Assembly: GCF_018398315.1 (NCBI RefSeq)
Contig: NZ_JAHBRW010000001.1
Coordinates: 2,228,001 to 2,292,000 of the forward strand
DNA length: 64,000 nt
Source: Chelatococcus sp. YT9
Lineage (GTDB): Bacteria > Pseudomonadota > Alphaproteobacteria > Rhizobiales > Beijerinckiaceae
Reading direction: 5' to 3'
Positions 11,518 through 63,984 of the stretch are shown here, piece after piece. Each line of letters starts with the position of its first letter. Position 1 is the first letter of the stretch. The notes beneath the pieces were generated by a model. The model was given only the letters and a program-made list of their open reading frames with translations, ran no database searches and was not told the origin of the DNA. A program made the translations under genes and the position numbers.

Positions 11518-11520
11518 CGA

Positions 11521-46782: not shown

Positions 46783-46809
46783 ATATGGCGTGTAATCGAT
46801 ATAGCGTGT
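46783..46809. promoter_or_regulatory. Tandem direct repeats upstream of the AraC gene
   Basis: ATATGGCGTGT (46783-46793) and ATATAGCGTGT (46799-46809) are spaced 16 bases apart. AraC proteins typically bind such direct half-sites. They lie in the AraC-MFS intergenic region, 16-42 bases from the AraC start. Confidence 0.45.
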
Positions 46810-49597: not shown

Positions 49598-49918
49598 GGG
49601 CCAAGACCTCGGCTGCGTGGTGTTTTGTAGACACGGCGGTTGAGAATGCGTGCCAGGGGGCAAAGGGAAGTTCAAGGCTGCACGCGCCAACCCCGCCCCA
49701 CCGCACCTTGCTACGCGTGTTTCTCAAGCTGTTGTGGAAGGCCTCTTGCGCCTCCTGATAGCGCCTGTCAACGCGCCATGGGAGGCACGCGCGGCTCGGG
49801 TTGCACGGAAAATATTTCAAGTTTAAATTATCAAGTTGGCATTGGGCGGGGCGTGGACCTGCCGGCATGCCGGCGATGAGCATGGCCGGCGGCGCATCGA
49901 GGGAGCGGCAAGAGGGCT
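49598..49918. other. Divergent intergenic region of the phosphatase and Rid genes
   Basis: About 320 bases with no supported ORF. An A/T-rich stretch near 49808-49832 (TTTCAAGTTTAAATTATCAA) is the best candidate for promoter DNA of the Rid gene. No LacI-type palindrome like those further right is present here. Confidence 0.4.
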
Positions 49919-50374
49919 ATGGCGGACAAGATCAACGGACATTCCGATGTGGTTGGAACGGCTCCCGTCGCGAACGGCCCTGTGCACACAGTTCTTCAGC
50001 CCCCGGGCTGGCCGCGCCCGAAGGGTTATGCCAATGGGATGATGGCCGAAGGGCGCGTCGTGGTGACGGGCGGCATCGTGGGGTGGGACGCGGAGGGGCG
50101 TTTTCCGCAAGGTTTCGTCGCGCAAGCCCGACAAACCTTCGCCAATATCGCTGCAATCCTGGCGGAGGCGGGGGCTGGCCCCGAGCATTTGGTTCGCCTC
50201 ACCTGGTATGTAACCGACATCGATGCGTATCTAGCCGACGGTCGGGCTCTCGGGGCCGCTTACCGTGAATTCTTCGGTCGCAATTTCCCCGCCATGGCGA
50301 CCGTACAGGTCGTGCGACTGGTGGAGCCCGAAGCGCTCATTGAGATCGAGGCGACCGCCGTCCTTCCCTCATAG
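49919..50374 (+). CDS. Rid-superfamily (YjgF/YER057c) protein lacking the RidA arginine
   Basis: A 151-residue Rid-family protein. YANGMMAEGRVVVTGGIVGW, FANIAAILAEAGAGPEHLVRLT and the C-terminal LIEIEATAVLP are clear family sequence. The segment that in E. coli RidA reads ARSC, with Arg105 needed for imine deaminase activity, reads FPAMATVQV here with Met126. It is therefore probably one of the non-deaminase Rid groups. It lies 485 bases upstream of an aminotransferase gene on the same strand, but with its own gap, so a link is only suggestive. Confidence 0.82.
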   Translation: MADKINGHSDVVGTAPVANGPVHTVLQPPGWPRPKGYANGMMAEGRVVVTGGIVGWDAEGRFPQGFVAQARQTFANIAAILAEAGAGPEHLVRLTWYVTDIDAYLADGRALGAAYREFFGRNFPAMATVQVVRLVEPEALIEIEATAVLPS

Positions 50375-50730
50375 TCCGCCAACGATTCGTCCTTCGACGC
50401 TGATTATCCGATTCGCCACTCACGTTAAGGCGCGTGTAATCTCTTGAACGTCGAAATCGGGGAGCGTGAAGGGCCCTAGAGCGTCGACGTGCGGGCCCCT
50501 CGGGGTGGTGTCGCGGTCTAGAGACCGCATGCCGCTTGCCGAGCGGGACAGACCGCGCGGTTCCCTTTCCGACCCTGCGATCGGTTGCATGAGGACACCA
50601 AGCGGAGGCCAAACCAAGCGCAGTTCCGTGAAACGCGCACCGCCTCACGAGATCCCCAGCTTCTTATGAAATCCTTTTTGGCGATGGAGAAATGCGCTGG
50701 GGACACAGCGCTCCACCAACTGCGCATTTT
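50375..50730. other. Intergenic region upstream of the aminotransferase operon
   Basis: About 355 bases after the Rid gene. Short minus-strand ORFs (for example 50337-50648) look like shadow reading. The last part leads into the LacI-type operator at 50731. No terminator with a T-run is visible. Confidence 0.4.
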
Positions 50731-50746
50731 ATGCAATCGGTTTCAT
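50731..50746. promoter_or_regulatory. LacI-type operator A, ahead of the DegT/Gfo-Idh operon
   Basis: ATGCAATCGGTTTCAT, one base different from operator C at 60163. A TTGACC that could be a -35 element begins at its last base. It is 114 bases before the aminotransferase start. Confidence 0.65.
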
Positions 50747-50859
50747 TGACCTTTGCTGCAGAATAGAGCGAAATAGTCCCGCCAACCCGAATGTGCAGGC
50801 TCGTCCAAGAGCGGCCGCGGGCGGTGTTCGAGGGGCGCACAGGTGGAGGGTCGGGGAAA

Positions 50860-52044
50860 ATGGCAGAGGTATTGAAGGCCGGTGCAGCACAGCCGGCGCT
50901 CGCACGCCTGATCCCCCCTTGGCCGCCGACGCCATCGGTGGAGGTCGAGAGCCGGATCGTTGAAGTCGTGCGCTCAGGCCTGTGGGGGAGCACCCAGGGA
51001 CATGTCGTGGAAGCGCTCGCCAAACGGCTGGCGGCCTTGCACGGTGTGCGCGCGGCCACCTGTTGCGCCAACGGTACCATCGCGATCGCGCTGGCGCTGA
51101 AGGCGGCGAATGTGCGCGCGGGCGACGAGGTCATCGTTCCGGCCTACACCTTTCTTGCGACGGCGAGCGCGCCTTTACTTCTCGGCGCAATTCCCGTCTT
51201 CGCCGAGATCGATCCGACCACCTTGATGATTGATCCCGACGATGTGCAGAGGAAGGTGAGTCCAAAGACGCGTGCCGTCATTCCTGTACATCTCGCCGGG
51301 GCGGTCGCCGAGGCTCATGCCATCAGGCAAAAGCTTGCAGGATCGCGCATCGTCGTGATCGAGGATGCCGCGCAGGCGATCGACGCCGCCCATGTCGACG
51401 GCCGCGTCGGCACTCTCGGCGACATGGCGACCCTGAGCTTCCAGACCAGCAAAAACGTCGCGGCGGGCGAGGGCGGGGCGGTCCTGACCGACAATGCCGA
51501 GTTCGGTGACATCCTTTGGTCGCTGCACAACGCCGGCCGCAGCCGTGGCGGCGGCTGGTATCAGCACGACCGCGTCGGCTGGAACCTGCGCATGACCGAG
51601 ATGCAGGGCGTATTGGCCGACTCGATGCTCGACACGCTGGCTGATATGGACGCGGCGCGTGCTGCAGGCTGGAAGAGTCTCGCAGGCTTGGCCGAAGCGG
51701 AAGGCCTTCCGGTCCAGGTGGTGGAGCCTGTGCGTACCATCCGGCACGCGCGTCATCTGATGCCCTGGCAACTCGCGACCGCCCGTCGTGACAAGGCATT
51801 GCGCGATGCTGTGGTAGCCGCGTTGCAGGAGGCGGGCATTCCGGCAAGTGCCGGCTATCCGCCGATCAATCGCATGCCGGCTATACGGGCCGAGGTCGCC
51901 GCGCTCGGTGGCCGGCCGGTGGATGACCTGCCGGTTACGGAAGAGGCGGCAGCGCAAAGCTGGTGGCTCCCACAGAACGTCCTGCTCGCGAATGAAGAGG
52001 TGCATGCGGCCGTCATCGCTGCCATGGCCAAGGCGCTTGGATAA
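50860..52044 (+). CDS. DegT/DnrJ/EryC1-family sugar aminotransferase
   Basis: A 394-residue PLP enzyme with fold type I. The PLP lysine is Lys198 in LSFQTSKNVAAGEGGAVLT, Asp169 in VIEDAAQAIDA contacts the ring nitrogen, and VPAYTFLATASAPLLLGAIP is a typical family segment. Members exchange keto and amino groups on sugars or cyclitols. With two Gfo/Idh dehydrogenases it could oxidise and transaminate a sugar, in either direction. The ATG at 50860 follows GGAGGG. It is the first gene of the operon behind LacI-type operator A. Confidence 0.87.
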   Translation: MAEVLKAGAAQPALARLIPPWPPTPSVEVESRIVEVVRSGLWGSTQGHVVEALAKRLAALHGVRAATCCANGTIAIALALKAANVRAGDEVIVPAYTFLATASAPLLLGAIPVFAEIDPTTLMIDPDDVQRKVSPKTRAVIPVHLAGAVAEAHAIRQKLAGSRIVVIEDAAQAIDAAHVDGRVGTLGDMATLSFQTSKNVAAGEGGAVLTDNAEFGDILWSLHNAGRSRGGGWYQHDRVGWNLRMTEMQGVLADSMLDTLADMDAARAAGWKSLAGLAEAEGLPVQVVEPVRTIRHARHLMPWQLATARRDKALRDAVVAALQEAGIPASAGYPPINRMPAIRAEVAALGGRPVDDLPVTEEAAAQSWWLPQNVLLANEEVHAAVIAAMAKALG

Positions 52045-52110
52045 AAGGCACTGGGGTGAGAAGCCCGGGTCCCGATGGGAAGAACTCTGGGTTGAATGGA
52101 AGGGCTACGG

Positions 52111-53151
52111 ATGCCGGATCTCAAGGTTGGATTGATCGGGCCAGGCGCGATTGGTCAGACACATGCGCGCGCCATCGCGGAGATCGAGAGCCTGCGGCTT
52201 GCGGCCGTGGCGGGTGGCGCGCCGGAGGACGCGGCCGTGCTGGCCGGTGGCGACGCGGCTCGATGGTTCGCGACGGCGGAGGAGATGATCGATGCCGCCG
52301 ATCTCGATATCGTTGTCATCGCGACGCCGAGCGGCGCGCATTACGCGCCGGCAGCCCAGGCCATCGCGAATGGGCGGCATGTGCTCGTCGAGAAGCCGCT
52401 GTGCGTTGACTGGGACGAGGCGGCGCGGCTCGTCGTGCAGGGTGAGCAGGCCGGGCTCACCTGCGGTGTCGTTTCGCAGCGGCGCTTGGAGCCGCAACAT
52501 GTTTATATCCACGATGCGCTACGCGCGGGGCGTCTTGGAGCTCCCCGGCTGATCGAGGCGGATGTGCATTGGTGGCGCTCACCGGAGTATTACCGGGAAA
52601 AGCCATGGCGCGCTGAGGTTAGTCATGGCGGTGGTTCCCTGTTCAACCAGGGCGTTCACAGCCTTGACCTGATGCTTTGGCTGTTTGGTCCTGTGGTTCG
52701 CGTGCAAGGCATCGCGACGACGTTGGGTCATGACTTGCCTATCGAGGACACGACGGCGGCGATTCTCACCTTCGCCAGTGGCGCCATCGGTACGCTCGTC
52801 ACCACGACGGCGACGCCGCCGGGCCATCCCGCCGGCCTGCGGATGTTCACGGATCGAGGGGCCTTCACGGTGGAGCACGCAAGTGTCGTGCGCTGGGATT
52901 TCCCCGACGTGCCGGCGCCCGGTGCAAGCTCCGGGATTGCGAGCGGCGCGGCCAATCCGGGCGACATCGGCATCGCGGGCCATGTGCAGCAATGGCAGGA
53001 TTTCATCGCTGCCATAGACGAGCGGCGCGCGCCGGCCGTGAGTTTCCGCGACGGTTTCGAGGCCGTGCGGGTGGCGAGCGCGATCTACCGCTCGTCCGAG
53101 GAAGGCCGCGCGGTTGAGATTGCAGAGTTTCCCGTCGGCGGGGAGGAGTAA
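52111..53151 (+). CDS. Gfo/Idh/MocA-family sugar dehydrogenase 1
   Basis: A 346-residue NAD(P)-dependent oxidoreductase. The N-terminal Rossmann motif LKVGLIGPGAIGQTHARAI is normal. Glu94-Lys95-Pro96 in VLVEKPLCVD is the hallmark of the family. GGGSLFNQGVHSLDLMLWLFG carries the catalytic histidine. It likely oxidises or reduces a sugar or inositol ring hydroxyl. The ATG at 52111 has AAGGG upstream; the one at 52096 does not have a ribosome site. It lies 66 bases after the aminotransferase and three bases before the second dehydrogenase. Confidence 0.87.
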   Translation: MPDLKVGLIGPGAIGQTHARAIAEIESLRLAAVAGGAPEDAAVLAGGDAARWFATAEEMIDAADLDIVVIATPSGAHYAPAAQAIANGRHVLVEKPLCVDWDEAARLVVQGEQAGLTCGVVSQRRLEPQHVYIHDALRAGRLGAPRLIEADVHWWRSPEYYREKPWRAEVSHGGGSLFNQGVHSLDLMLWLFGPVVRVQGIATTLGHDLPIEDTTAAILTFASGAIGTLVTTTATPPGHPAGLRMFTDRGAFTVEHASVVRWDFPDVPAPGASSGIASGAANPGDIGIAGHVQQWQDFIAAIDERRAPAVSFRDGFEAVRVASAIYRSSEEGRAVEIAEFPVGGEE

Positions 53152-53154
53152 GCC

Positions 53155-54171
53155 GTGGCAGGGCGTATTGAGATCGCGGTGATCGGCGCGGCGCATCAGC
53201 ACGTGGACTATGTGCTCGATGAGGTTGCGAGGCGTGATGACGTCGGCATCGTTGCCGTGGTGGAGCATGATCCAGCGCGCCGCGCGACCCTGGAGCAGCG
53301 CACCGGGGCGCCCGGCTATGCAGAGGTGGAGACGATGCTCGAGCGGCATCGCATAGACGCGGCATCCGTTGTGACCGAGTTCGGCGCGCGCGCCGGCATC
53401 GTCACGACTCTCGCTCAGCGCGGGATTTTCGCCATCGTCGACAAGCCGCTGGCGGTCACGCGGGCCGGCCTGGACGCGCTGGAGGCAGCGCTCGACGGCC
53501 GGCCGCTTGTCGCCTTGATGCTGGAGAAGCGCTTCTATCCGGTAACGCTGGCGCTGCGCGGCCTCGTCGCCGATGGCGTTATCGGCGAGATCGTCACGAT
53601 TCATGCGACCGGTCCGCACAAGTTCTACGCCGCGCGGCGGCCGGGCTGGATGTTCGACGCGGACCAATACGGCGGCATCCTCGCCGACTTGACCGTGCAC
53701 GATATCGATCTTGCCTTATGGCTCATCGGCGGCACGCGCGGGACAGTTGCCGGCTGGGTATCGGCGATCGACGCGCCGGGTGTCGGCGTCCTTCCGGGCA
53801 AACGGAGTTTTCCCGGCGCCGGGCGCGCGATCCTCACCGTTGAAGGAGGACCGCAGGTCGCAGTAGAGGTCGACTGGTTGCAGCCCGAGGCCTCGCCCCG
53901 TCATGGCGACTACGCCATGCGCATCACCGGCACCCGGGGGCGGGCGGATGTCTTGTTCGCCGAGGACAAGCTGCTGGTCGAAACCCATGACACGCCGTTG
54001 CGCGAGTGGCCATTGCCGCCCGGCGAACCGCCGGCGCGCTTCGCGCTCGACCATCTGGCGAGGGGCGAGCCGCTCGCGGTGCCGACGCCGGACGCTCTGC
54101 GCGCCACGCGCATCGCAATCCTCGCCCAGGAGAGCGCGGCTGCCGGGGGCAGGGCGCTGGAGTGGGCGTGA
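53155..54171 (+). CDS. Gfo/Idh/MocA-family dehydrogenase 2, atypical motifs
   Basis: A 338-residue protein. The Rossmann segment is unusual (IEIAVIGAAHQHVDYVLDEV, without GxGxxG), and the EKP motif is Asp96-Lys97-Pro98 (VDKPLAVT). LMLEKRFYPVTLALRGLV and GGILADLTVHDIDLALWLIGG, with its histidine, are family sequence. It may use a different cofactor conformation or act on a distinct substrate from dehydrogenase 1. It starts with GTG at 53155 after GGGGAGGAG. It ends the operon; the next gene is convergent. Confidence 0.82.
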   Translation: MAGRIEIAVIGAAHQHVDYVLDEVARRDDVGIVAVVEHDPARRATLEQRTGAPGYAEVETMLERHRIDAASVVTEFGARAGIVTTLAQRGIFAIVDKPLAVTRAGLDALEAALDGRPLVALMLEKRFYPVTLALRGLVADGVIGEIVTIHATGPHKFYAARRPGWMFDADQYGGILADLTVHDIDLALWLIGGTRGTVAGWVSAIDAPGVGVLPGKRSFPGAGRAILTVEGGPQVAVEVDWLQPEASPRHGDYAMRITGTRGRADVLFAEDKLLVETHDTPLREWPLPPGEPPARFALDHLARGEPLAVPTPDALRATRIAILAQESAAAGGRALEWA

Positions 54172-54221
54172 ATGTGGCGGTTTGCGCGATCTCACTGAGC
54201 GAGCCGAGACGTCTCCGCCCT

Positions 54222-54277
54222 CCCGGGGTGTCATCAAGTCAGTCACGCCGCGCCGATCCCTCTCCTCAGGGGAGGGT
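54222..54277 (+). repeat. Palindromic intergenic repeat, copy 1
   Basis: It begins CCCGGGGTGTCATC and ends with the hairpin GATCCCTCTCCTCAGGGGAG. The reverse complement of copy 2 reads CCGGGGATGTCAC, then GATCCCTCCCCCCAGGGGAG in the same order. Dispersed repeats of this kind are common in Hyphomicrobiales genomes. Confidence 0.65.
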
Positions 54278-54388
54278 GGCGCCGCAGGCGCCGGGTAGGG
54301 GCTGCCTGACGCTGACCCGACGGCAATATGGCTAGCCTGCGAGCATGGGCTCAAGCCGCGTGACCCCACCCGACCTCGCTGATGCGAG

Positions 54389-54434
54389 ACCCCTCCCCTG
54401 GGGGGAGGGATCAGCCCCGAGTGACATCCCCGGC
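54389..54434 (-). repeat. Palindromic intergenic repeat, copy 2 (inverted)
   Basis: An inverted copy of the element at 54222-54277, with the hairpin CCCTCCCC-TGG-GGGGAGGG near 54391-54409 and GTGACATCCCCGG at 54421-54433. The copies face each other about 110 bases apart. Confidence 0.65.
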
Positions 54435-54499
54435 GGGCTGCACAGCAGCTCCGGAAGGGGATCTCGATATCAACCACGAACCGGTGATGGACGCGTCCG

Positions 54500-55738
54500 T
54501 CAGAGCAGCGCCAGCGCAGCCTCCGCTAACGCTTCTGCCGTACCGGGCGCGAAAGGGCCGGGCGTGCCATAAGGACGCCAGGCGATATCGACTTCATAGC
54601 CGCCATCGGGGATGGCGGTGAGGGGAGGGATGTAGCCCGGGTTGGTATAGGCATAACCAACGACCAACGCTCCCGGGACCGCAGCCTGCAAGGCCAGCGC
54701 CTGATCAACGAATATCTCGCCGGGCAGAAAAAAGGCCGTGAAATCGCCCAGCCGCAGCGCGCCGACGGTCAGCTCGGTGCCCGCATGCGCGCGTGCCAGC
54801 CAGTCGCGGTCGATCTGCGCCATGGCCTTCTCGCCAAAGCTCGCAGCGGGGTTCGAGAGGACCTGCGACGCCTCGTGGGCAACCCGGACACGCTGCGACG
54901 TCTCGACGGAGGCGAAAGCAGCGGCTCGGGTGGTCTCGCCGTAGGCGAGCGTCTCGACAGGCTGCCCCTTCAGCCCGCGCAGAGCGGGGGCGACCGTATC
55001 CGCCAGCAGCGTTCCGATCCGCTCAGCCTCTGCGGGGGTGCGCCTGGACATCCCGCTCTGGCGGATTGAGTCCATCGTCTTGTGGCCGGTGTTGATCTGC
55101 CCGCAGCAGCCGGTGGTGTACAACACCGGCGCAGATAGGAGCTCCTCCAGCCGGCTACGTGCGGCACCGGGGAAATCCGCGCTGTAGCGAAGATTGTCGG
55201 GCCCGAGCACGACCGGGTGGCAGGCGAAGTTCACCCAGAGCGCGCCGAGCGTGCCATTCTCCATGCAGAAGGCCACCGCATCGGCGTTGTGATCGACCGG
55301 GCCATCATCGAGGCGGCGGTTGTGGGCGATGCCGGGCACCGGCACCTTGATTGGGCTGATGCGGCCCGGCCGCAGAGCAGCGCTCGCCTCTTGCAGCAGA
55401 TCCAAGGTCGTCGCGACGAGGCTGTCCACATAGGCAGCATCGGCATGGCCGAGCATGGAGCGGGCGAGCACGGGCGGACCGGCATGGGTGTGGGTCGCGC
55501 AAGGCACGAGATCGATATCGCCAGGCAGTTGCGGCGCGAGCCTGATACGGAAATCTTCCGGCACACCGATGAGATCGAGGGCGAGGATGGCCACGCGCCG
55601 CTCGCCCACCTCCACGAGAAGGAGCCGGGCTGTCAGCGGATCGAGCGTGCCGGTAGCGAGCCCGGCGCGGCTCGCGAAGCCCGAGAGCTCGGTCGGCGTC
55701 GCCGGTGTGATCCCGCGCATGGCAAAGGCAAAGCGCAT
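54500..55738 (-). CDS. Neutral/alkaline ceramidase-like hydrolase
   Basis: A 412-residue protein related to the N-terminal catalytic domain of neutral/alkaline non-lysosomal ceramidases (PF04734-like). The metal-binding segments are CATHTHAGPPVLARSM and FACHPVVLGPDNL, followed by SADFPGAARSRLEE and TTGCCGQINTGH. It is much shorter than true ceramidases and has no signal peptide, so it is likely cytoplasmic. In this sugar operon it may hydrolyse an amide such as an N-acyl amino sugar; that is inference. It starts 12 bases after the second permease gene. Confidence 0.75.
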   Translation of the reverse strand: MRFAFAMRGITPATPTELSGFASRAGLATGTLDPLTARLLLVEVGERRVAILALDLIGVPEDFRIRLAPQLPGDIDLVPCATHTHAGPPVLARSMLGHADAAYVDSLVATTLDLLQEASAALRPGRISPIKVPVPGIAHNRRLDDGPVDHNADAVAFCMENGTLGALWVNFACHPVVLGPDNLRYSADFPGAARSRLEELLSAPVLYTTGCCGQINTGHKTMDSIRQSGMSRRTPAEAERIGTLLADTVAPALRGLKGQPVETLAYGETTRAAAFASVETSQRVRVAHEASQVLSNPAASFGEKAMAQIDRDWLARAHAGTELTVGALRLGDFTAFFLPGEIFVDQALALQAAVPGALVVGYAYTNPGYIPPLTAIPDGGYEVDIAWRPYGTPGPFAPGTAEALAEAALALL

Positions 55739-55750
55739 GGTAGTCCTCCG

Positions 55751-56623
55751 CTATTCCTTCAGCCCGCTCGATGCCACACCCTGCACGAAATTGCGGCGCA
55801 TGAAGGCGAAGAACAGGATGCTCGGGAGGAGCGCGAGCGCCGCCGCGGCGCTGAGACGGCCGAGATCGACCGTGAAGCCGGTCTGAAACAGCGCGAGTCC
55901 GACCTCCAGGGTATAGCTTTCCTTGGTGGCGGTGATGATCATCGGCCAGGTGAACGCCGTCCAGGACTGGAAGAAGGCGAGCACGGCGAGCGTCCCGAGC
56001 GGGCCGCGCATCAGCGGCACGACGATCCTCAGAAAAATCCAGCTCTCGCTTGCCCCGTCGATGCGGGCAGCTTCGATCAGTTCGTCCGGAATCGACGCGA
56101 TAACATACTGGCGGATGAGAAAGATGCCGAAGCTCATCACGAGATAGCCGATGAGCAATCCCCACAGCGAGTTCAGAAGACCGAGCTGCTGCACCCCGAG
56201 ATAGAGCGGGATCATATAGACCTCGAACGGGATGATGGCCGTCGCGAGGATCATGCCGAAGATGATATGCACGCCTGGGAAGCGGAACTTGCCGAGCACA
56301 TAGCCTGACACCGCCGAGGTCGTGACGATGGCGATGGTGGACAGGACCGCGAACAGGAAGGTGTTGCCGATCCAGCGCAGAAGGGGCGTTTCGGCGAGAA
56401 CTGAGGTGATGTTCTCCAGGGTTGCGTCACGGGGAATGATGGTCGGCGGCCACTGCAGCAGTTCTTGAGGCGACTTGAAGGCGTTCGACACCAGGAACAC
56501 CAGCGGCAGCAGCATCAGGATGCAGAAAATGATCAGGATGACGTCGATCACGCCATTCAGGATGCGCTCACCCGCGGTCGCGCGTGGGCCGGCTTCGGTG
56601 GCGGAGAGGGACCTGTCGCTCAT
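55751..56623 (-). CDS. Sugar ABC transporter permease 2 (MalG type)
   Basis: A 290-residue carbohydrate (CUT1) importer permease with six hydrophobic helices. The coupling EAA loop is SIPDELIEAARIDGASESWI. Family blocks are MLLPLVFLVSNAFKSPQELL near the N-terminus and FFQSWTAFTWPMIIT near the C-terminus. The ATG at 56623 overlaps the stop of permease 1 (ATGA). No ATPase gene for the system lies in the operon or elsewhere in the LacI-linked region. Confidence 0.92.
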   Translation of the reverse strand: MSDRSLSATEAGPRATAGERILNGVIDVILIIFCILMLLPLVFLVSNAFKSPQELLQWPPTIIPRDATLENITSVLAETPLLRWIGNTFLFAVLSTIAIVTTSAVSGYVLGKFRFPGVHIIFGMILATAIIPFEVYMIPLYLGVQQLGLLNSLWGLLIGYLVMSFGIFLIRQYVIASIPDELIEAARIDGASESWIFLRIVVPLMRGPLGTLAVLAFFQSWTAFTWPMIITATKESYTLEVGLALFQTGFTVDLGRLSAAAALALLPSILFFAFMRRNFVQGVASSGLKE

Positions 56624-57540
56624 GCCCGGCCCTTTTCGCGGAAGACTCTGAACTGAATGGCCGTGAGGGCGAGCACGATGGCGAGCAGGATGACGGCCTC
56701 GGCGGCGGCATAGCCGACCCGATAGTTGCGGAAGCTGTTCTCCAGCATGTCCAGCACCAGCACACGGACCAGCCTGCCCGGCGCGCCCTGCGAATCCGAT
56801 GCGAGCACAAAAACCTGCGCGTAGATGTTGAAAGCCGCGATCAGCGTGATCACGGAGACATAGAGAAGGACCGGCTTGAGCTGCGGTATGGAAATGTGCC
56901 GAAAGCATTGCAGCGCCGAGGCGCCGTCGAGCCGCGCCGCCTCGTAGAGCGACTGCGGAATGTTCTTGAAGCCGACGAGGAATATGAGGACGGCATAGCC
57001 CAGTGCTTGCCATGAGCACAGGACGATGACGCAGATGATGGCGAGCACCGGGTCAAACAGCCAGGCCTGCGGTGGCAGCCCGAAAAAGCCCAGGAGGGTG
57101 TTGAGCGGGCCGAGGCGTGCGTCGAATATCCATTTCCAGGCCATGGCCGCGGGCACGAGCGAGACGACGTGCGGAATGAAGATCGACGTCTCGTAGAAGC
57201 CCGCGAAACGCGACCTCGTGCGATGGTGGATGAGGGCGGCGAGGACAAGGCCGAGCGGCACGGTGATCGCCAACACCCCGAAGGCAATGATCGTCGTGTT
57301 GCGCAAGGCCTCGAGGAAAAGCGCGTCGGTGACGAGTTCACGGAAGTTGTCCAGCCCGATGAAGGGCTTGCGGCGCGAGATCAGGTTCCACTGAAACAGA
57401 CTGAGACGCAACGTCTCAATGATGGGAATGAAGCGGACGAGGGTATAGATGATGAGTGCGGGCAGGAGCGCCAGGATGGCGAATGTAAAGCCCTTGCGAT
57501 TCCAGGTACCGACCAGTTCCCGCACGCTTTCTCTCCGCAT
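56620..57540 (-). CDS. Sugar ABC transporter permease 1 (MalF/UgpA type)
   Basis: A 306-residue CUT1 permease with six helices. The EAA loop is NIPQSLYEAARLDGASALQCF, and IFIPHVVSLVPAAMAWKWIF and YAQVFVLASDSQGAPGRLV are family blocks. The start MRRESVRELVGTW at 57540 is chosen; the frame stays open into the binding-protein gene but that part is not permease-like. An 85-base gap with a strong hairpin separates it from the binding-protein gene. Confidence 0.9.
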   Translation of the reverse strand: MRRESVRELVGTWNRKGFTFAILALLPALIIYTLVRFIPIIETLRLSLFQWNLISRRKPFIGLDNFRELVTDALFLEALRNTTIIAFGVLAITVPLGLVLAALIHHRTRSRFAGFYETSIFIPHVVSLVPAAMAWKWIFDARLGPLNTLLGFFGLPPQAWLFDPVLAIICVIVLCSWQALGYAVLIFLVGFKNIPQSLYEAARLDGASALQCFRHISIPQLKPVLLYVSVITLIAAFNIYAQVFVLASDSQGAPGRLVRVLVLDMLENSFRNYRVGYAAAEAVILLAIVLALTAIQFRVFREKGRA

Positions 57541-57558
57541 TCGGGACCAAGAAGAGTT

Positions 57559-57593
57559 CGCCGGTGTGTTTGGGGAGGAGAAACACACCGGCG
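57559..57593 (-). other. Perfect 13-bp hairpin between binding-protein and permease genes
   Basis: CGCCGGTGTGTTT (57559-57571) and AAACACACCGGCG (57581-57593) form a perfect stem with a nine-base loop. Placed after the binding-protein gene, it likely stabilises that message or partly terminates, giving more binding protein than permease. No T-run follows directly. Confidence 0.75.
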
Positions 57594-57625
57594 ATGCGCT
57601 AAAGGCACGTGTCGCAGACGCCGGA

Positions 57626-58927
57626 TCAGGGCGTGGCGAGCAGGCCTTCACGCTTAAGGATGGTGTCAACCTCCGCGGCAGCCTCCTTGAGGAACGCATC
57701 GATGGCGGCGTCATCCTTGAGCTTCGGGTTGGTGTAGCCGTCGACGAGGCGCGCTGCGACGCGTGTCAGGATCTCGCTGGCCGGGGCGATCGCGGGCAGG
57801 GAGAAGAACTTGTAGTCAGTGGGAAAGTTGACGAAGGCGCCGAAGGCCGGCGTCTTTGCAATGATGGCGGAGTAATCGACATCTTTTCGGTTGGGCAGCC
57901 AGCCGATGTTGTCCAGGAGCCACTGCAGGTTTTCCGGCTCGTTCGCCTGGAGGATGTACTCCCAGGCGAGGTCGGCTTTCTTGCCGGGTTTGGTCGGCAC
58001 ATAGAGATTGACCGGAATGACGATCGAGCCGCGCGGCAGCGGCGCGGTGGCATATTTCAGATTGGGCGACTTCTTGGCGATGTCACCAATCACCCAGGAC
58101 TCGCGGATGAACATGGCTGTCTGACCGAGCTCGAAGGCTTCCGCATCCGCCTTCATCTCCGGCGTGACTGTTTTCAGTACCTGGACGTTGTCGACGTACT
58201 GCTTGAAAGCTTTGCGTCCGGCCTCGTTGGCGAAAGCCGCCCTCCATTTGCCGTCCTTCTCCTCAAGCAAATTGCCGCCGAACTGGAACAGGTTGATCCA
58301 GAACTTCTCGGCCACGCCCTGACCGCCGCCCGACAGGCGCAGGCTCCAGCCGCTGACCGTCGGCTTGCCCTGCGCGTCGCGCTGCGTCAGCTTTTCGGCG
58401 TAAGGCGTATAGTCTTCCATGGTCTTCGGCGGGCCGGAAAGGCCTGCCTTCGCGAACATGTCGGTGTTGTAGTAGAGCGCAGTCTGCCCGCGGAACAGCG
58501 GCACGCCGTAGATCTTGTCCTCGAAGGTGACGCTATCCTGGAAGAATTTGTCGAAATGCTTGCTGTCCTTGACGAACTTCACGACGTTGTCCGGCGCGGG
58601 CGGAACGAGGCCGCCTTCCAGATACCGGGTCGCCTCGACCTCCATCTCGATGACATCAGCGGCGGCCCCCGAGGGCAGCGCAAGCGCGTTACGCTTTTCG
58701 TGCTCGCGCAGGGCGATCAGCTCGACGCTGACTTCCAGATCCGGGTATTTCTTCTTCAACTGCTCGCCGACCCGCTTGTAAAAGGGCTCCATCTCGGGCC
58801 AACCGCCCCAGATCGTGAGCTTCTCGGCTTGGGCGGGCAGCATGGATGCGAAGAGCGTCGCCGCCGCGATGGCGAGGATGGGCCGCTTCCTTGCGGGCTT
58901 CCTGCTGGTCGATTCTGCGAAATTCAT
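57626..58927 (-). CDS. Sugar ABC transporter substrate-binding protein (family 1)
   Basis: A 433-residue periplasmic binding protein of the MalE/UgpB kind. A signal peptide (about 1-34) ends SMLPAQA-EK. The mature part starts LTIWGGWPEMEPFYKRVGEQ, and YGVPLFRGQTALYYNTDMFA and PRGSIVIPVNLYVPTK are family segments. The ATG at 58927 follows GAGGGGA. LacI-type operator B lies 55-70 bases upstream, so the importer is induced by the sugar it carries. The ligand could be an amino sugar or its glycoside, judging by the linked enzymes. Confidence 0.9.
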   Translation of the reverse strand: MNFAESTSRKPARKRPILAIAAATLFASMLPAQAEKLTIWGGWPEMEPFYKRVGEQLKKKYPDLEVSVELIALREHEKRNALALPSGAAADVIEMEVEATRYLEGGLVPPAPDNVVKFVKDSKHFDKFFQDSVTFEDKIYGVPLFRGQTALYYNTDMFAKAGLSGPPKTMEDYTPYAEKLTQRDAQGKPTVSGWSLRLSGGGQGVAEKFWINLFQFGGNLLEEKDGKWRAAFANEAGRKAFKQYVDNVQVLKTVTPEMKADAEAFELGQTAMFIRESWVIGDIAKKSPNLKYATAPLPRGSIVIPVNLYVPTKPGKKADLAWEYILQANEPENLQWLLDNIGWLPNRKDVDYSAIIAKTPAFGAFVNFPTDYKFFSLPAIAPASEILTRVAARLVDGYTNPKLKDDAAIDAFLKEAAAEVDTILKREGLLATP

Positions 58928-58981
58928 GATCGGATCCCCTCTGACGCTGGCGCTCTGGATCGCCTCTCCTGAAAAAGTGTC

Positions 58982-58997
58982 GTGCAACCGGTTGCGT
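58982..58997. promoter_or_regulatory. LacI-type operator B, ahead of the sugar importer
   Basis: GTGCAACCGGTTGCGT contains TGCAACCGGTTGC, a perfect palindrome in its centre with the CCGG core typical of LacI-family sites. It lies between the LacI gene and the binding-protein gene. Confidence 0.75.
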
Positions 58998-59037
58998 GTC
59001 AAGCGGCCTTCGCGTGGCGTCCGCCGTGAAGATTCGA

Positions 59038-60045
59038 TCAGGCGCCGATAGCCGGTCCCGTTGTCCCCCGCACGACGAGATGGGACTCAAGCACGTAGCG
59101 CACATCGCGCATGGCTTTGACTTTCAAGAGGTCCATGAGCAGATCCGCAGCGACCTGGCCTGCTTCCTTGCAACGTGCGGAGACGGTCGTCAGCGGGGGA
59201 TATGTAGTCGCGCCGAGCACGTCATCGCAGCCGACAACGCTGAACTGGCCCGGCACGTCGATGCCGCGTTCGGCCAAGCCCGCGAGAAGGCCCTGAGCGA
59301 CAAGATCATCGAAAGCCAGCGCGGCTGTAGCCCTTGAGGCGAGGATCTGTCCCGTCGCCGCGTAGCCGGTTTCATAGGTCGGAGGACGAGCCGGAACGGC
59401 AATGATCTCCACGCCGCGCTTCGTCGCCTCCCGACGCAGGGCAAGGCGACGCTGCTGATTGGACCACGACGCGGATGGTCCGCTGACATAGACGATGCGG
59501 CGATGGCCATGTTCGATGAGATGCGTGAGGGCGGCGGTGATGCCGGTGGCGCTGTCGATGAGGACCCTCGGAATGCCGCCAACGTCGCGGTTGACGAGCA
59601 CGATCGGCCGGCGCTCGGCATAAAGCCGGATACGCTCTTCATCGAGACGCGAAGAGACCAGGATCATACCCTCGACCTGGCTGGTGAAGCGGCCGACGAG
59701 AACGTCCTCCCGCGCAGCCTGTTCGTCGGAATTACCGAGGAAGACGCAGAAGCCGGCTTCGTCCGCCCGCAACTGCGCAGCCCGAATCAGCGGTGGGAAA
59801 AACGGATTGGCGACGTCGGGCACGATAAGCGCGAGATTGCCGTGGCGGCCCGTGCTCAGCGCCCGCGCGACCTGATTCGGAACATAGCCGACTTCGCGGG
59901 CAATCGACTTGACGCGCTGGACCGTGGCTTCGCTCAACATTTCCGGCCGCGTGAAGGCGCGGGAAACCGTAGCGCGCGAGACGCCCGCCAAGGCTGCCAC
60001 CTGATCGATGGTGGGCACGCGCCGCCGGGATGTTTCGTCGTCCAT
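59038..60045 (-). CDS. LacI-family regulator of the amino-sugar locus
   Basis: A 335-residue regulator. The headpiece TIDQVAALAGVSRATVSRAF and the hinge-side REVGYVPNQVARALSTGR are standard. The effector domain is of the ribose-binding type (LALIVPDVANPFFPPLIRAA; FSVVGCDDVLGATTYPPLTT). The ATG at 60045 follows GGGA; a TTG at 60048 is also in frame. Three CCGG/TCGG-centred palindromes, ahead of the DegT operon, the importer and the NagB-like gene, are its probable sites. The gene is divergent from nagB and upstream of the importer. Confidence 0.9.
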   Translation of the reverse strand: MDDETSRRRVPTIDQVAALAGVSRATVSRAFTRPEMLSEATVQRVKSIAREVGYVPNQVARALSTGRHGNLALIVPDVANPFFPPLIRAAQLRADEAGFCVFLGNSDEQAAREDVLVGRFTSQVEGMILVSSRLDEERIRLYAERRPIVLVNRDVGGIPRVLIDSATGITAALTHLIEHGHRRIVYVSGPSASWSNQQRRLALRREATKRGVEIIAVPARPPTYETGYAATGQILASRATAALAFDDLVAQGLLAGLAERGIDVPGQFSVVGCDDVLGATTYPPLTTVSARCKEAGQVAADLLMDLLKVKAMRDVRYVLESHLVVRGTTGPAIGA

Positions 60046-60162
60046 CAAACTTTTTCCCGCGCGATCGTTCTCGAACTATCTGGCTTCACGAGGAGACTAG
60101 CGGAAAACCGCCTCGCTGAGGAACCCTGGGAAGGATCATAGGGCAGAATTCGATGGCTTGAC

Positions 60163-60178
60163 ATGCAATCGGTTGCAT
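60163..60178. promoter_or_regulatory. LacI-type operator C, between lacI-type gene and nagB-like gene
   Basis: ATGCAATCGGTTGCAT, a near-perfect 16-bp palindrome. It overlaps the end of a TTGACA (60159-60164), so a bound repressor would cover a likely -35 element of the NagB-like gene. Confidence 0.75.
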
Positions 60179-60286: not shown

Positions 60287-61051
60287 ATGGAATCAGTTGC
60301 AGGACAGCAAACTGTGCGACCGGTCGTTCTGTCCTTTGGCACGCGGTTGGAGATGGGACGCGCCGCCGCAGCCGACGTCGCCGCTGAGCTCAGGGCGCGA
60401 TTGGCACGCCAGCCAGGCGTACGGATGATCTTCGCCGCCGCCGTTAGCCAGAACGACATGTTGGAGGCGCTGATCGCCGAGCCCGGAATCGACTGGCGAC
60501 GGGTGACAGCCTTCCATATGGACGAGTATCTGGACCTGCCCGCCGATGCGCCCCAGCGCTTCGGGAATTGGCTGCGCCAAGCGATCTTCGATCGACTGCC
60601 GTTCGCCGCTGTTCACCTGATCGATCCCGGCTCGAACGCCGATGCTGCAGTTGCGGCCTATGCTGCAAATCTCGCGGAGGCGCCGATCGACATCGTTTGT
60701 CTCGGAATAGGCGTCAACGGACACCTGGCCTTCAATGACCCGCCCGTTGCTGACTTTGCTGATCCGCAATCAGTCAAAATCGTCACGCTCGATGACGTCT
60801 GTCGCCAACAGCAGGTTGATGACGGCGCCTTCGCCACCGTCGCTGAAGTGCCGCAGCGCGCGGTCACCCTTACGATACCGCGCCTTCTCGACGCCGATCG
60901 TCTCTTCTGTGTGGTACCTGGTGCGTCCAAACGGGAGGCTGTCGACCGGGCATTGAAGGGCCCGCTCGAGACGGCTTGTCCGGCGAGCGTTTTGCGGCTC
61001 CATCCGGCGTGTCGCCTCTATCTTGACGCGGAATCGGATCCGCGCCGTTGA
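60287..61051 (+). CDS. NagB-like glucosamine-6-phosphate deaminase/isomerase
   Basis: A 254-residue sugar-phosphate isomerase of the NagB/RpiA fold. Asp79 in TAFHMDEYLDLP and His146 in CLGIGVNGHLAFNDPP align with the catalytic Asp72 and His143 of E. coli NagB. Position 148 of NagB (Glu) is Asp151 here, and the DGH aspartate is Asn144, as in Bacillus NagB. It likely converts glucosamine-6-phosphate or a related amino sugar phosphate to the keto sugar and ammonia. The ATG at 60287 follows GAGAGGGAA. It is controlled through operator C. Confidence 0.85.
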   Translation: MESVAGQQTVRPVVLSFGTRLEMGRAAAADVAAELRARLARQPGVRMIFAAAVSQNDMLEALIAEPGIDWRRVTAFHMDEYLDLPADAPQRFGNWLRQAIFDRLPFAAVHLIDPGSNADAAVAAYAANLAEAPIDIVCLGIGVNGHLAFNDPPVADFADPQSVKIVTLDDVCRQQQVDDGAFATVAEVPQRAVTLTIPRLLDADRLFCVVPGASKREAVDRALKGPLETACPASVLRLHPACRLYLDAESDPRR

Positions 61052-61123: not shown

Positions 61124-61876
61124 TCAGGCTTGCGCGCCACCGGCGGGCAGAACCACGACCTTGGTGCCGACTGGCACACGCTGGTAGAGATCTATCGCGT
61201 CCTGGTTGATCATGCGAATGCAGCCGGAGGACACGTTCTTGCCAATCGTCCACGGCTCAAGCGTGCCGTGAATGCGGTAGAGAGTGTCCTTGTTGCCCTG
61301 CCACAGATACATGGCGCGGGCGCCCAGTGGATTATGCGGCCCGCCGGGAACACCGAGCCCGCTCTGCAACTGGCTTGCCACTTTCTTGAGCTCGGGCTGG
61401 CGCTGGATCATCTCCTTCGGCGGATACCAGTCTGGCCATTCCTGCTTTGAATTGATCGTCGCGGCGCCTGACCAGCCGAAACCCTCGCGTCCCACGCCGA
61501 CGCCATATCGCATCGCCCGTCCATTCTCCTGGACGAGATAGAGATAGCGTTGGCGAGGGTCGACGACGATGGTGCCTGGTTGCTCCGTCGTGGAGTAGGG
61601 CACGGAGCGACGCAGATAAGCAGGATTTATCTCGGATAGATTGACGGCCCGCACGGGGAAGCGCTCCCCCTCGACAGGGCCGTAATAGGAAGCGACCTGC
61701 GCATCGGACGCCGGTAGATCCGCCGGAGGCGGGATCTCGCGATCAGCAATGCGTCGCCCCGTACTGGGACCAAGGTTTGCCTGTTCCGGGTTCGGGCTTA
61801 CGCAGCCACTGAGGCCGAGACCCGTGAGGCCGGCCGCCAGACCGGAGAGAAAGCTGCGGCGTTTCAACTCGATCAT
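61124..61876 (-). CDS. L,D-transpeptidase (YkuD domain) lipoprotein
   Basis: A 250-residue cell-envelope enzyme. The N-terminus has Arg-Arg then a hydrophobic run and a lipobox, KRRSFLSGLAAGLTGLGLSG-C, so export and lipid attachment are expected. The YkuD domain (about 95-245) has IVVDPRQRYLYLVQENGRAM, GARAMYLW and the catalytic block HGTLEPWTIG followed by SSGCIRM. Such enzymes make 3-3 peptidoglycan cross-links or attach lipoproteins to the wall. The ATG at 61876 is preferred over the codon at 61900. It has no evident link with the sugar genes around it. Confidence 0.9.
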   Translation of the reverse strand: MIELKRRSFLSGLAAGLTGLGLSGCVSPNPEQANLGPSTGRRIADREIPPPADLPASDAQVASYYGPVEGERFPVRAVNLSEINPAYLRRSVPYSTTEQPGTIVVDPRQRYLYLVQENGRAMRYGVGVGREGFGWSGAATINSKQEWPDWYPPKEMIQRQPELKKVASQLQSGLGVPGGPHNPLGARAMYLWQGNKDTLYRIHGTLEPWTIGKNVSSGCIRMINQDAIDLYQRVPVGTKVVVLPAGGAQA

Positions 61877-62287
61877 GGACTTATCGTACTCCCAACGCAC
61901 TGTTCGCGGTCTATGTCTCGATGGTATATGACGTGGTGCACTTCAGTCGTTTGAACGTGGGCAAGGCTCCCAAGAAGCGTTTCACATCGTAAGGCCGCTG
62001 TCGCTGCCGGGCCGAAAGAAGCGCATGTTACAGTCTAGCTCAAACTTCGTAGGGCTGGTACCGCTCCGCACATGGTCTGCATTATCTAGTTTGAAGTAAC
62101 GTTAGCGCGGCTGCGGAGTTTTAGTTGTATCTGCTTCGGACGACCTGCAGTGCGACGTGCTGGGACACGGTCTCCCGGGCATAAAAATCTATAAATTTCA
62201 ATAGTTTATTGCGTGCCGTTTGTCCTGCGAAAGCTCGGTGGTGGCTTTCGCAGCCCTCAGTCATCCTTACTAGTATCGGTGTTTCCT
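61877..62287. other. Intergenic region upstream of the L,D-transpeptidase gene
   Basis: About 410 bases of relatively A/T-rich DNA, especially at 62080-62220. It presumably contains the L,D-transpeptidase promoter and the end of the small membrane-protein gene. A 73-codon frame at 62121-62342 overlaps that gene and shows no family features. Confidence 0.45.
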
Positions 62288-62838: not shown

Positions 62839-63984
62839 TCAGACGCGCCGCTCTCCTTGGACGAAGACCGCCTCGAGCGACAAGGTTGAATCGCCCGGCG
62901 CCCAACGGAAGCGGATGAGATCAGCGGGCGCCCCCACCCGGATGGTGCCGCGGTTGCTCGCGAAGCGGCCGGGGTTGACCGTTGCGAGCTTTAAGGCGTC
63001 ACCGAGGGTTAAGCCTCCCATGATCGTCGCCTGCGCCACGCAATCTGCGAGGGGCCGCACCGCACCAGCGAGGAAGGGCGTACCCGCTACTCCAAGCCGG
63101 CCATCGGCAGTCAATTCGACACGGCCGCCGATCGGCTGATCGTAGACGCCGGGCGGCAGGCCGCCGAGCGCGACTGCGTCCGAGACCAGCACCGCACGTT
63201 CCAGGCCCTTTGCGCGCAGCATGGCCCGGAAGGTATCTCCAGGAAGATGGTGCCCATCGGCGATGAAAGTCGCGGTGAGGCGATCCTCGGCAAGCTGCGT
63301 CCAGATGAAATTAGGGTGGCGGGGCAGAGTGGCCGCCGCGCCGTTCCCGAGATGGGTGGACAGGCTCGCCCCCGCATCGACCGCCGCCGTGATTTCAGCG
63401 GGAGACGCGCCGGTATGGCCTATCGCGACATGCACGCCCTCTCGCGTCAGCGCGCGGATATAAGCCGGCGCTTCCCGATAGTGCGGTGATAGTGTCACGA
63501 GGCCGACCAAGCCGCCGCTCGCGGCCTGCCAACGTCGGAATTCCTCGATATCTGGCGGTCGGACGTGAGCGCGCGGATGCGCCCCACGCGGGCCGTCCTC
63601 CGGCGAGAGGTGAGGGCCCTCGACATGGACGAAGGGGATCGCATGGGCGATACGGGGATTGCCGGCGCGCGCCGCGGCGATCGCACGGAGCGCTGCGACG
63701 ATCGCCTCCTCGGACGCGGTGATGATCGTCGGCAGAAAGGTCGTGACCCCGACCCGCAGCATGGCGTCCGTCAGAGCCTCGACCGTCGCGACGGTCAGCG
63801 CGCTGCCATTGATGTCATGACCGTTGAAGCCGTTGACCTGCAGGTCAACGAGGCCGGGGGCGAGCCAGACGCTCTCATGCTCCGGCCCCGCCGCGATCGA
63901 GGCTATCAGCCCGTCTGCAACGTCAATGGCGAGCGCGCGGCCTGTCGCGGGATCTTTGCCCGTGATGGTCAAAGGCTGCCTCAT
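62839..63984 (-). CDS. nagA: N-acetylglucosamine-6-phosphate deacetylase
   Basis: A 381-residue amidohydrolase-superfamily deacetylase. Metal and catalytic residues are present: Glu122 in VHVEGPHLSPEDG, His190 in AIGHTGASPAEI, His211 in STHLGNG and Asp269 in VLVSDAVALGG. LAPGLVDLQVNGFNGHDING is the family N-terminal motif. It removes acetate from GlcNAc-6-phosphate, giving the substrate of NagB. No LacI-type site lies in the 16 bases before the window end, so its promoter and any operon partners are outside. Confidence 0.92.
   Translation of the reverse strand: MRQPLTITGKDPATGRALAIDVADGLIASIAAGPEHESVWLAPGLVDLQVNGFNGHDINGSALTVATVEALTDAMLRVGVTTFLPTIITASEEAIVAALRAIAAARAGNPRIAHAIPFVHVEGPHLSPEDGPRGAHPRAHVRPPDIEEFRRWQAASGGLVGLVTLSPHYREAPAYIRALTREGVHVAIGHTGASPAEITAAVDAGASLSTHLGNGAAATLPRHPNFIWTQLAEDRLTATFIADGHHLPGDTFRAMLRAKGLERAVLVSDAVALGGLPPGVYDQPIGGRVELTADGRLGVAGTPFLAGAVRPLADCVAQATIMGGLTLGDALKLATVNPGRFASNRGTIRVGAPADLIRFRWAPGDSTLSLEAVFVQGERRV

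What the first reader, a model, noticed from the sequence alone, without database searches (positions are those of the whole stretch)
50731..60178. Three LacI-type operators link a DegT aminotransferase, two dehydrogenases, a sugar importer and a NagB-like enzyme
ATGCAATCGGTTTCAT (50731), GTGCAACCGGTTGCGT (58982) and ATGCAATCGGTTGCAT (60163) precede the three transcription units around one LacI gene. DegT plus Gfo/Idh recalls kanosamine-type chemistry (NtdA/NtdC of Bacillus). Joined with import, a ceramidase-like hydrolase and NagB, it suggests degradation of an unusual amino sugar, with oxidation and transamination of the ring. I know of no described pathway with this set.
Basis: partly seen in the sequence, partly recalled or inferred. 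Interest (0 to 1): 0.75.

Follow-up and report, generated by a model that had tools for sequence, protein, structure and literature searches.

The report
LacI-controlled amino-sugar import and breakdown regulon
A sugar-sensing repressor and its DNA switches, conserved in many related bacteria, appear to control genes that import and break down an amino sugar, and in this genus and one relative the usual middle steps are replaced by an unusual set of enzymes whose substrate is not known.

Summary
The operators are real. The exact pattern occurs three times in the 6.74 Mb genome, all here. A fourth, weaker site (50575) lies 156 bp before the DegT site and recurs in the three other genus genomes. 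The genus is Chelatococcus.

The motif is very likely the site of an orthologous LacI group. In 84 related loci, 74 of 74 testable NagB genes and 73 of 84 importer genes have it upstream; all 150 sites lie at NagB, importer or DegT, against one site in the reversed control.

Most related loci read LacI-NagB-SIS-NagA-hydrolase-importer-AGE-like. Chelatococcus lacks SIS (4 of 4 genomes) and AGE-like (3 of 3 searched) and has DegT plus two Gfo/Idh enzymes. A Methylobacteriaceae MAG shares this set, with sites before DegT, importer and an unlinked NagB-NagA pair. An Agrobacterium plasmid has both dehydrogenases without DegT.

This is a new variant of an amino-sugar regulon. The nearest solved relatives are AHBA synthase and 3q2k/3q2i, not NtdA. 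The substrate is unproven; a 3-amino sugar is my best guess.

The parts
50575..50590 (+). fourth, weaker operator (CTGCGATCGGTTGCAT), 156 bp before the next; possible looping partner
   Evidence: a site at the same place in L026, L028, L029
50731..50746 (+). operator in front of DegT (ATGCAATCGGTTTCAT)
   Evidence: a site with 3 mismatches also lies in front of DegT in L032
50860..52044 (+). DegT/DnrJ/EryC1/StrS aminotransferase (longest ORF from 50791; conserved part from about 50860)
   Evidence: PF01041 277.9 bits; alignment; profile best to AHBA synthase with the lysine motif aligned
52096..53151 (+). Gfo1, Gfo/Idh/MocA dehydrogenase nearest to 3q2k/3q2i
53155..54171 (+). Gfo2, second Gfo/Idh/MocA dehydrogenase
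54500..55738 (-). hydrolase related to neutral ceramidase, no signal peptide seen by eye, positions of all four recalled zinc ligands conserved
55751..56614 (-). ABC sugar permease B
56620..57558 (-). ABC sugar permease A (longest ORF to 57714)
57626..58930 (-). sugar-binding protein of the importer (longest ORF to 59002)
58982..58997 (+). operator in front of the importer (GTGCAACCGGTTGCGT)
   Evidence: same position in related loci
59038..60048 (-). LacI-family repressor
   Evidence: PF00356 and PF13377; 48-70% identical to LacI of related loci outside the genus
60163..60178 (+). operator between the divergent LacI and NagB genes (ATGCAATCGGTTGCAT)
60287..61051 (+). NagB-like sugar-phosphate deaminase (longest ORF from 60158)
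   Evidence: PF01182; start by comparison
62839..63984 (-). NagA-like deacetylase, next door but with no operator seen
49919..50374 (+). RidA-family protein before DegT; possible partner, upstream of the operators
   Evidence: present in the genus, found in 1 of 84 related loci, the Chelatococcus one

Best explanation
This is an inducible import-and-degradation regulon for an amino sugar, probably N-acylated and possibly part of a small oligosaccharide. SHOWN by sequence: a LacI-type repressor gene, and conserved operator-like sites between LacI and NagB, at the importer and (two) at DegT. INFERRED: without the sugar the repressor binds and blocks all three units, the two DegT sites perhaps by looping; with the sugar or a derivative it lets go. 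The importer brings the sugar in. The ceramidase-type hydrolase, in the cytoplasm, removes an N-acyl group. Gfo1 and Gfo2 oxidise and reduce one ring position, perhaps C3. DegT takes the freed amino group off onto a keto acid, leaving a keto sugar for a Gfo enzyme to reduce. The product, a GlcNAc- or GlcN-type sugar, is phosphorylated by a kinase encoded elsewhere, deacetylated by NagA and deaminated by NagB to fructose 6-phosphate. In most relatives SIS and AGE-like proteins are present where this genus has DegT, Gfo1 and Gfo2. My confidence in the regulon and the amino-sugar theme is about 0.85; in removal of a 3-amino group about 0.25 (lowered from 0.3 on re-checking, because a 4-aminotransferase ranks above WbpE among the DegT hits).
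For: Exact operators only here in the genome. All 150 sites in 84 related loci lie at NagB, importer or DegT, against 1 in the reversed control. LacI, importer, NagB and NagA are 58-77% identical to those of four plasmid operons. DegT-Gfo1-Gfo2-hydrolase with importer recur in a Methylobacteriaceae MAG, with sites (3 mismatches each) before DegT, importer and an unlinked NagB-NagA pair. Gfo1-Gfo2 sit with the same LacI group, two sites, NagB, NagA and importer on an Agrobacterium plasmid. SIS is absent from 4 of 4 genus genomes and the MAG, one control genome being positive; AGE-like is absent from 3 of 3 genus genomes searched, two other genomes being positive. The hydrolase profile matches neutral ceramidase 2zws at 3.7e-19 with the metal ligands aligned. 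DegT is nearest to AHBA synthase, whose RifK also makes UDP-3-amino-3-deoxyglucose with the oxidoreductase RifL (PMC8788734, passages). Gfo1 is nearest to 3q2k/3q2i, which I recall as WlbA, a UDP-GlcNAcA 3-dehydrogenase. The binding protein's profile hits are mainly oligosaccharide binders. Homologues of DegT and hydrolase share six haloarchaeal plasmid records among the rows shown (25 of 38 and 20 of 26); in Natrononativus the two genes are 3 bp apart.
Against: No substrate or activity data. NagB, NagA, DegT and both Gfo proteins fall below all NCBIfam cut-offs listed, so their exact activities are not assigned. Perosamine synthase (232-236 bits, a 4-aminotransferase by recall) and scyllo-inosose aminotransferases (224-235) rank above WbpE (211) for DegT, so C3 is not singled out. 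No kinase or glycosidase was seen among the commonest neighbour groups. The Agrobacterium locus lacks DegT and hydrolase and carries mannonate-dehydratase and fructuronate-reductase-type genes, which points to a uronate part. NagA here has no operator seen. Next to DegT, RidA is found only in Chelatococcus among 84 loci. The Chloroflexota locus with DegT has no such site.
Confidence: 0.5

Rival explanations
1. The substrate carries a hexuronate as well as an amino sugar (a glycosaminoglycan-like disaccharide or amino-uronic acid). Gfo1 and Gfo2 make and remove a 3-keto group to open the glycosidic bond or to epimerise; DegT handles a keto or amino intermediate of that route.
For: UxuA-like matches in 26 and mannitol/fructuronate-type dehydrogenase matches in 12 of 84 loci (a few weak or on the other strand), directly in line with the importer operon in L021; both types beside Gfo1-Gfo2 in Agrobacterium. 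Haloarchaeal regions with DegT, hydrolase and Gfo genes also hold sulfatases (3 of 4 regions) or heparinase II/III-family genes (2 of 4). Glucuronide 3-dehydrogenase 8tdi is among the Gfo1 profile hits (120 bits).
Against: Chelatococcus shows no UxuA or such dehydrogenase in the locus (L031), and no lyase or glycosidase was seen among the 25 commonest neighbour groups. The haloarchaeal Gfo proteins are only 22-30% identical to Gfo1/Gfo2.
Confidence: 0.25
2. Kanosamine-type degradation: DegT removes the 3-amino group of kanosamine or its 6-phosphate and a Gfo enzyme reduces 3-keto-glucose, the reverse of NtdA/NtdC or RifK/RifL.
For: DegT nearest to AHBA synthase; 3-keto plus transamination is the logic of RifL/RifK and KabC/KabA (PMC8788734, passages).
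Against: NtdA ranks far below (151 against 276 bits). Kanosamine would need neither NagA, NagB nor a second dehydrogenase. Gfo1-Gfo2 occur without DegT in Agrobacterium.
Confidence: 0.12
3. DegT and the two dehydrogenases are a biosynthetic set that merely shares the repressor.
For: Most named solved DegT relatives are biosynthetic (names; function by recall).
Against: The gene set travels with importer and hydrolase in a MAG of another family (L032), and DegT-Gfo1 homologues with a related importer in Chloroflexota (L109). The genome's two other DegT matches lie in what by eye is a polysaccharide-synthesis region with another Gfo gene.
Confidence: 0.06

Closest known systems
LacI/NagB/SIS/NagA/ceramidase-like/importer/AGE-like operons of Hyphomicrobiales and relatives (not named in the papers searched)
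   Same: same LacI group, operator, importer, NagB and NagA (58-77% identical to four plasmid operons); same hydrolase superfamily
   Different: window lacks SIS and AGE-like, has DegT, Gfo1 and Gfo2, and a hydrolase on a long separate branch (100/100 support, with a long-branch warning)
NagR (LacI) and NagQ (GntR) regulons of GlcNAc use in Proteobacteria (PMC5343134, passages)
   Same: control of nagA- and nagB-type genes
   Different: those passages place NagR in gammaproteobacteria and NagQ in alpha among others; PTS transporter there, ABC importer here; no DegT in the passages seen
RifL/RifK and KabC/KabA (NtdC/NtdA) kanosamine synthesis (PMC8788734, passages)
   Same: an oxidoreductase plus a PLP aminotransferase acting at C3 of a hexose
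   Different: biosynthetic; NtdA is not the nearest relative of the window DegT; RifL itself was not compared
WlbA/WbpE (2,3-diamino uronic acid synthesis, recalled)
   Same: Gfo1 nearest to 3q2k/3q2i (recalled as WlbA); WbpE among DegT hits (211 bits)
   Different: nucleotide-sugar biosynthesis; here an importer regulon, and several aminotransferases rank above WbpE
Streptomyces NagS (PMC12680351, abstract, outline and passages)
   Same: SIS-family protein in GlcNAc metabolism, like the SIS of the related loci
   Different: paper reports distant homologues (26-36% identity) with no or negligible activity; identity of these SIS proteins to NagS was not measured here; no SIS in Chelatococcus

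Membership tests
LacI-family repressor | LacI HTH and periplasmic-binding-type sensor domain | tested here: met
   PF00356 52.9 bits (cut-off 27), PF13377 104.2 bits (cut-off 26.5)
LacI-family repressor | binds the palindromic CG-centred operators named | not testable with these tools
   strong footprint only
DegT/DnrJ/EryC1/StrS aminotransferase | family profile and conserved PLP lysine motif | tested here: met
   277.9 bits against cut-off 19.8; SFQTSKN aligned with SFQNGKL of AHBA synthase; that this lysine is catalytic is recalled
NtdA/KabA kanosamine aminotransferase | closest solved relative is NtdA | tested here: not met
   NtdA 151 bits, AHBA synthase 276 bits
glucosamine-6-phosphate deaminase (NagB) | superfamily profile | tested here: met
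   PF01182 76 bits against 27
glucosamine-6-phosphate deaminase (NagB) | NCBIfam NagB model cut-offs | tested here: not met
   best 113.7 bits against 326; TIGR00502 93.7 against 236.9
glucosamine-6-phosphate deaminase (NagB) | active-site Glu after FN (E. coli Glu148, recalled) | tested here: not met
   FNDP in the window; of 73 family NagB proteins 60 matched the motif, all with FNDP, 13 did not match
N-acetylglucosamine-6-phosphate deacetylase (NagA) | TIGR00221 cut-off | tested here: not met
   183.4 against 225.65 bits
neutral ceramidase | PF04734 match | tested here: inconclusive
   no hit for the window protein; relatives L021 46.8 and L022 37.1 bits over 32.1; family profile to 2zws 3.7e-19
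neutral ceramidase | zinc ligands His97, His204, Glu411, Tyr448 (recalled for the Pseudomonas enzyme) | tested here: met
   aligned with H83, H174, E341, Y369, invariant in 14 sequences
neutral ceramidase | secreted, about 650 residues | tested here: not met
   412 residues against 646 in 2zws; no signal peptide seen by eye
neutral ceramidase | acts on ceramide | not testable with these tools
   no activity data
Gfo/Idh/MocA dehydrogenase | both domains | tested here: met
   PF01408 and PF22725 over cut-off for both proteins
AGE epimerase (for the AGE-like protein of related loci) | family profile | tested here: inconclusive
   no Pfam or NCBIfam hit for L021; profile to N-acylglucosamine 2-epimerase 8bry only 5.1e-6; so named in the Martelella record

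The most novel reading that the evidence does not exclude
A catabolic pathway that runs 2,3-diamino-sugar chemistry backwards: the hydrolase strips the 3-N-acyl group from an imported N-acylated 2,3-diamino sugar (as in lipid A or surface glycans of some Hyphomicrobiales), DegT removes the 3-amino group, a Gfo enzyme reduces the 3-keto group to give a GlcNAc-type sugar, and NagA/NagB finish it. It would be the first assigned degradation route for such sugars that I know of, and the DegT-hydrolase pairing in haloarchaea would extend it to another domain.
Probability: 0.12. Interest if true: 0.8.

Novelty: new variant of a known kind. Interest (0 to 1): 0.5.

Why it matters
The core is a widespread LacI regulon, mostly in Hyphomicrobiales, not described in the papers found here, with a very clear operator; its inducer could be found by a simple reporter or binding screen and would inform some eighty loci at once. 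The Chelatococcus variant is a natural swap: SIS and AGE-like proteins in most relatives, DegT plus two dehydrogenases here, under the same repressor group. If both serve the same sugar, roles follow for several poorly known enzyme groups, including cytoplasmic relatives of ceramidase.

Tried and rejected
Chance operators: rejected by genome-wide and 84-locus counts, though the stricter core has 4 places elsewhere against 1 in the reversed control. Operators of another LacI protein: unlikely, because the sites follow this LacI group and its targets through many genera; the site at 2011337 before a ribose-type binding protein may belong to another repressor. SIS as Streptomyces NagS: not supported by the NagS paper, which reports distant homologues without that activity; identity was not measured here. 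Conserved kinase or glycosidase: none seen among the 25 commonest groups of unmatched neighbours, judged by eye. A BadF/BadG-type kinase candidate lies elsewhere in the genome (C1:2653381-2654205), unlinked. DegT in wider sampling: 1 of 397 order genomes at 1e-80 and 1 of 398 phylum genomes at 1e-85, both the own genome; these scored at most four candidates per genome and can miss; 4 of 4 in the genus. Hydrolase in the class at 1e-20: 1 of 385, a thin sample, since one search found many relatives. A first SIS search had no positive control and was repeated with one. Substrate residues of Gfo1 and Gfo2 were not resolved. Structure prediction of the hydrolase was asked for six times and never ran.

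Literature, ten searches: kanosamine degradation, ceramidase with amino sugar and LacI (34, none), glucosamine/SIS/LacI/Rhizobium (41, none), DegT with Gfo/Idh, diamino sugar with GnnA/GnnB (44), NagS (49), RifL/RifK (69), Chelatococcus, the operator core as text (74, none), NagQ/LacI regulons. Seen: PMC12680351 abstract, outline and passages; PMC8788734 passages; PMC4052901 passages; PMC5343134 passages; the rest as search listings. Supplements were not available, so an entry in RegPrecise tables cannot be excluded.


Full report
OBSERVATION. The three sites are at the stated places. The exact pattern occurs at 3 places in the 6.74 Mb genome, all in this locus; at up to 2 mismatches there are 36 rows against 23 for the reversed control, so the rest is near background. 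With a stricter symmetric core and up to one mismatch, 4 of 8 places are here, against 1 place in the reversed control. Of the 4 elsewhere, one lies before what by eye is the start of a ribose-type binding-protein gene and 3 lie inside longest reading frames. A fourth site at 50575 stands 156 bp before the DegT operator; in 3 of 3 other genus genomes a site stands at the same place, 157-160 bp from its neighbour.

GENES. DegT, two Gfo/Idh proteins, two permeases, binding protein, LacI and NagB-like protein are confirmed by Pfam. The window hydrolase has no Pfam hit of its own, but two relatives scanned pass the Ceramidase_alk cut-off and the family profile finds neutral ceramidase 2zws at 3.7e-19. 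In that alignment the recalled zinc ligands of the Pseudomonas enzyme fall on H83, H174, E341 and Y369, invariant in 14 sequences. It is 412 residues long and shows no signal peptide by eye, so it is probably cytoplasmic. NagB very likely begins at 60287, which leaves 108 bp between the third operator and NagB and 114 bp between it and LacI. A NagA-like gene lies at 62839-63984; no site was seen at its genus orthologues.

RELATED LOCI. A scan of species genomes with the binding-protein alignment kept 80 of 95 confirmed loci, to which I added four plasmid loci. Of these 84: binding protein 84, permease A 82, hydrolase 82, permease B 81, NagA 78, AGE-like 77, SIS 76, NagB 75, LacI 74, UgpC 62, Gfo3 32, UxuA 26, mannitol-type dehydrogenase 12, DegT 3, Gfo1 3, Gfo2 2 (several loci are cut by contig ends, and weak paralogues are counted, chiefly under UgpC and Gfo3). 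The usual order is LacI, then divergent NagB-SIS-NagA-hydrolase-binding protein-permeases-AGE-like-UgpC. AGE-like is a weak assignment.

OPERATOR FOOTPRINT. With ATGCAACCGGTTGCAT and up to 3 mismatches there are 150 sites in 84 loci (1.57 Mb) and 1 in the reversed sequences. All 150 lie at NagB, binding protein or DegT: 74 of 74 NagB genes (over 45% identical to the window's, with enough upstream DNA) and 73 of 84 binding-protein genes have one within 330 bp. The 11 misses are L033, L073, L084, L087, L088, L091, L092, L097, L100, L109 and L110. The consensus was chosen after seeing the four plasmid loci and the genus, so those are not independent.

THE VARIANT. SIS without DegT: 75 loci; DegT without SIS: 2; both: 1 (Chloroflexota L109, no operator); neither: 6, mostly short contigs. 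SIS is missing from the whole genomes of 4 of 4 Chelatococcus and of the L032 MAG, with L033's genome as positive control. AGE-like is missing from 3 of 3 Chelatococcus genomes searched and present in the genomes of L032 and L033. L032 (Methylobacteriaceae MAG) has LacI, AGE-like, importer and hydrolase, and DegT-Gfo1-Gfo2, with a site (3 mismatches each) in front of importer and of DegT. Elsewhere it has a NagB-NagA pair (NagB 44-46%, NagA 43%) with a 3-mismatch site at 3550, which is 81 bp before the NagB match and 153 bp before that, though inside the longest ORF there. Agrobacterium pAtCFBP6624 has LacI-Gfo2-Gfo1 divergent from NagB-NagA-UgpC-importer-UxuA-dehydrogenase, two sites between them (1 and 2 mismatches), and no match to DegT, hydrolase, SIS or AGE-like. 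So Gfo1-Gfo2 go with the core, and DegT is a further layer. The hydrolases of the DegT loci form a separate branch (100/100) on a long stem; the tree program warns that long branches meet there.

WIDER LEADS. Six haloarchaeal plasmid records hold matches to both hydrolase and DegT among the rows shown (25 of 38 and 20 of 26). I read four: Natrononativus, Haloprofundus, Haladaptatus and Halosolutus. DegT is 31-34% and hydrolase 29-31% identical; Gfo/Idh genes are annotated in all four, RidA-type genes in 3 of 4, sulfatases in 3 of 4, heparinase II/III-family genes in 2 of 4. The window RidA did not itself match there at 1e-5, and no operator-like site was found. DegT and hydrolase are 3 bp apart in Natrononativus and about 4, 15 and 23 kb apart in the others. 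These regions were picked because both genes had hits, so they show that the pairing exists, not how common it is.

NEAREST KNOWN ENZYMES. The DegT profile ranks AHBA synthase first (276 bits), then an unspecified DegT aminotransferase 8gyh (255), perosamine synthase (232-236), 2-deoxy-scyllo-inosose aminotransferases (224-235), WbpE (211) and, much lower, NtdA (151). Gfo1 ranks 3q2k and 3q2i first (244 and 229 bits), the next at 137; I recall these two as WlbA. AHBA synthase RifK, with RifL, also makes UDP-3-amino-3-deoxyglucose (PMC8788734, passages). The top hits point to C3 keto and amino chemistry, but perosamine synthase, a 4-aminotransferase by recall, ranks above WbpE, and resemblance at this level does not fix a substrate. 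The Gfo2 hits are mostly unnamed oxidoreductases.

MECHANISM AND CONFIDENCE. The regulon and its amino-sugar theme are well supported by comparison, though every activity is inferred. The step order in the best explanation is my proposal. NagB in this family has Asp where E. coli NagB has Glu148 (recalled), in 60 of 60 matched motifs out of 73 proteins, and NagA and NagB fall below NCBIfam cut-offs, so their substrate may not be plain GlcNAc-6-phosphate.

NOVELTY. I found no paper describing this LacI regulon or this gene set in the ten searches made (listed under tried and rejected); supplements and RegPrecise tables were not available. I rate it a new variant of a known kind: a sugar regulon with a NagA/NagB end and an unusual middle.

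Noticed in passing
49919-50374: RidA-family gene directly before the DegT operators, present in the three other genus genomes (one only partly in the fetched stretch); RidA-type genes are also annotated in three of the four haloarchaeal regions read, though the window protein does not match them at 1e-5.
   Followed up: partly
48767-49690: Inositol-monophosphatase/HisN-type phosphatase divergent from RidA, below all NCBIfam cut-offs; found in two of three genus stretches, the third being cut before it.
   Followed up: no
60287-61051 and 73 family NagB proteins: FNDP instead of FNEP at the NagB active-site motif in all 60 matched motifs, perhaps a different phospho-sugar substrate.
   Followed up: partly
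L129 position 2038 (G000:C1:2011337): A near-match site TGTAATCGATTGCA just before the by-eye start of a ribose-type ABC binding-protein gene elsewhere in the genome.
   Followed up: partly
L109, 8907-20512: Chloroflexota locus with SIS, a related importer, amidohydrolase-like and ROK proteins (by eye), Gfo1 and DegT homologues, without this operator.
   Followed up: partly
L133 (Agrobacterium tumefaciens pAtCFBP6624, 5300-17423): Same LacI core with Gfo1-Gfo2 and UxuA plus fructuronate-type dehydrogenase on a plasmid typed as conjugative.
   Followed up: yes
L025 about 4500-14500 (just beyond the window's right end): A long masked run of N follows the NagA region in the genome held here.
   Followed up: no
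45964-48373: AraC-type regulator and a divergent MFS-type transporter gene, named by eye from the reading frames; tRNA-Gly at 48547-48621.
   Followed up: no
61124-61900: L,D-transpeptidase-like gene (named by eye) between NagB and NagA, found in the same place in the other three genus genomes.
   Followed up: no
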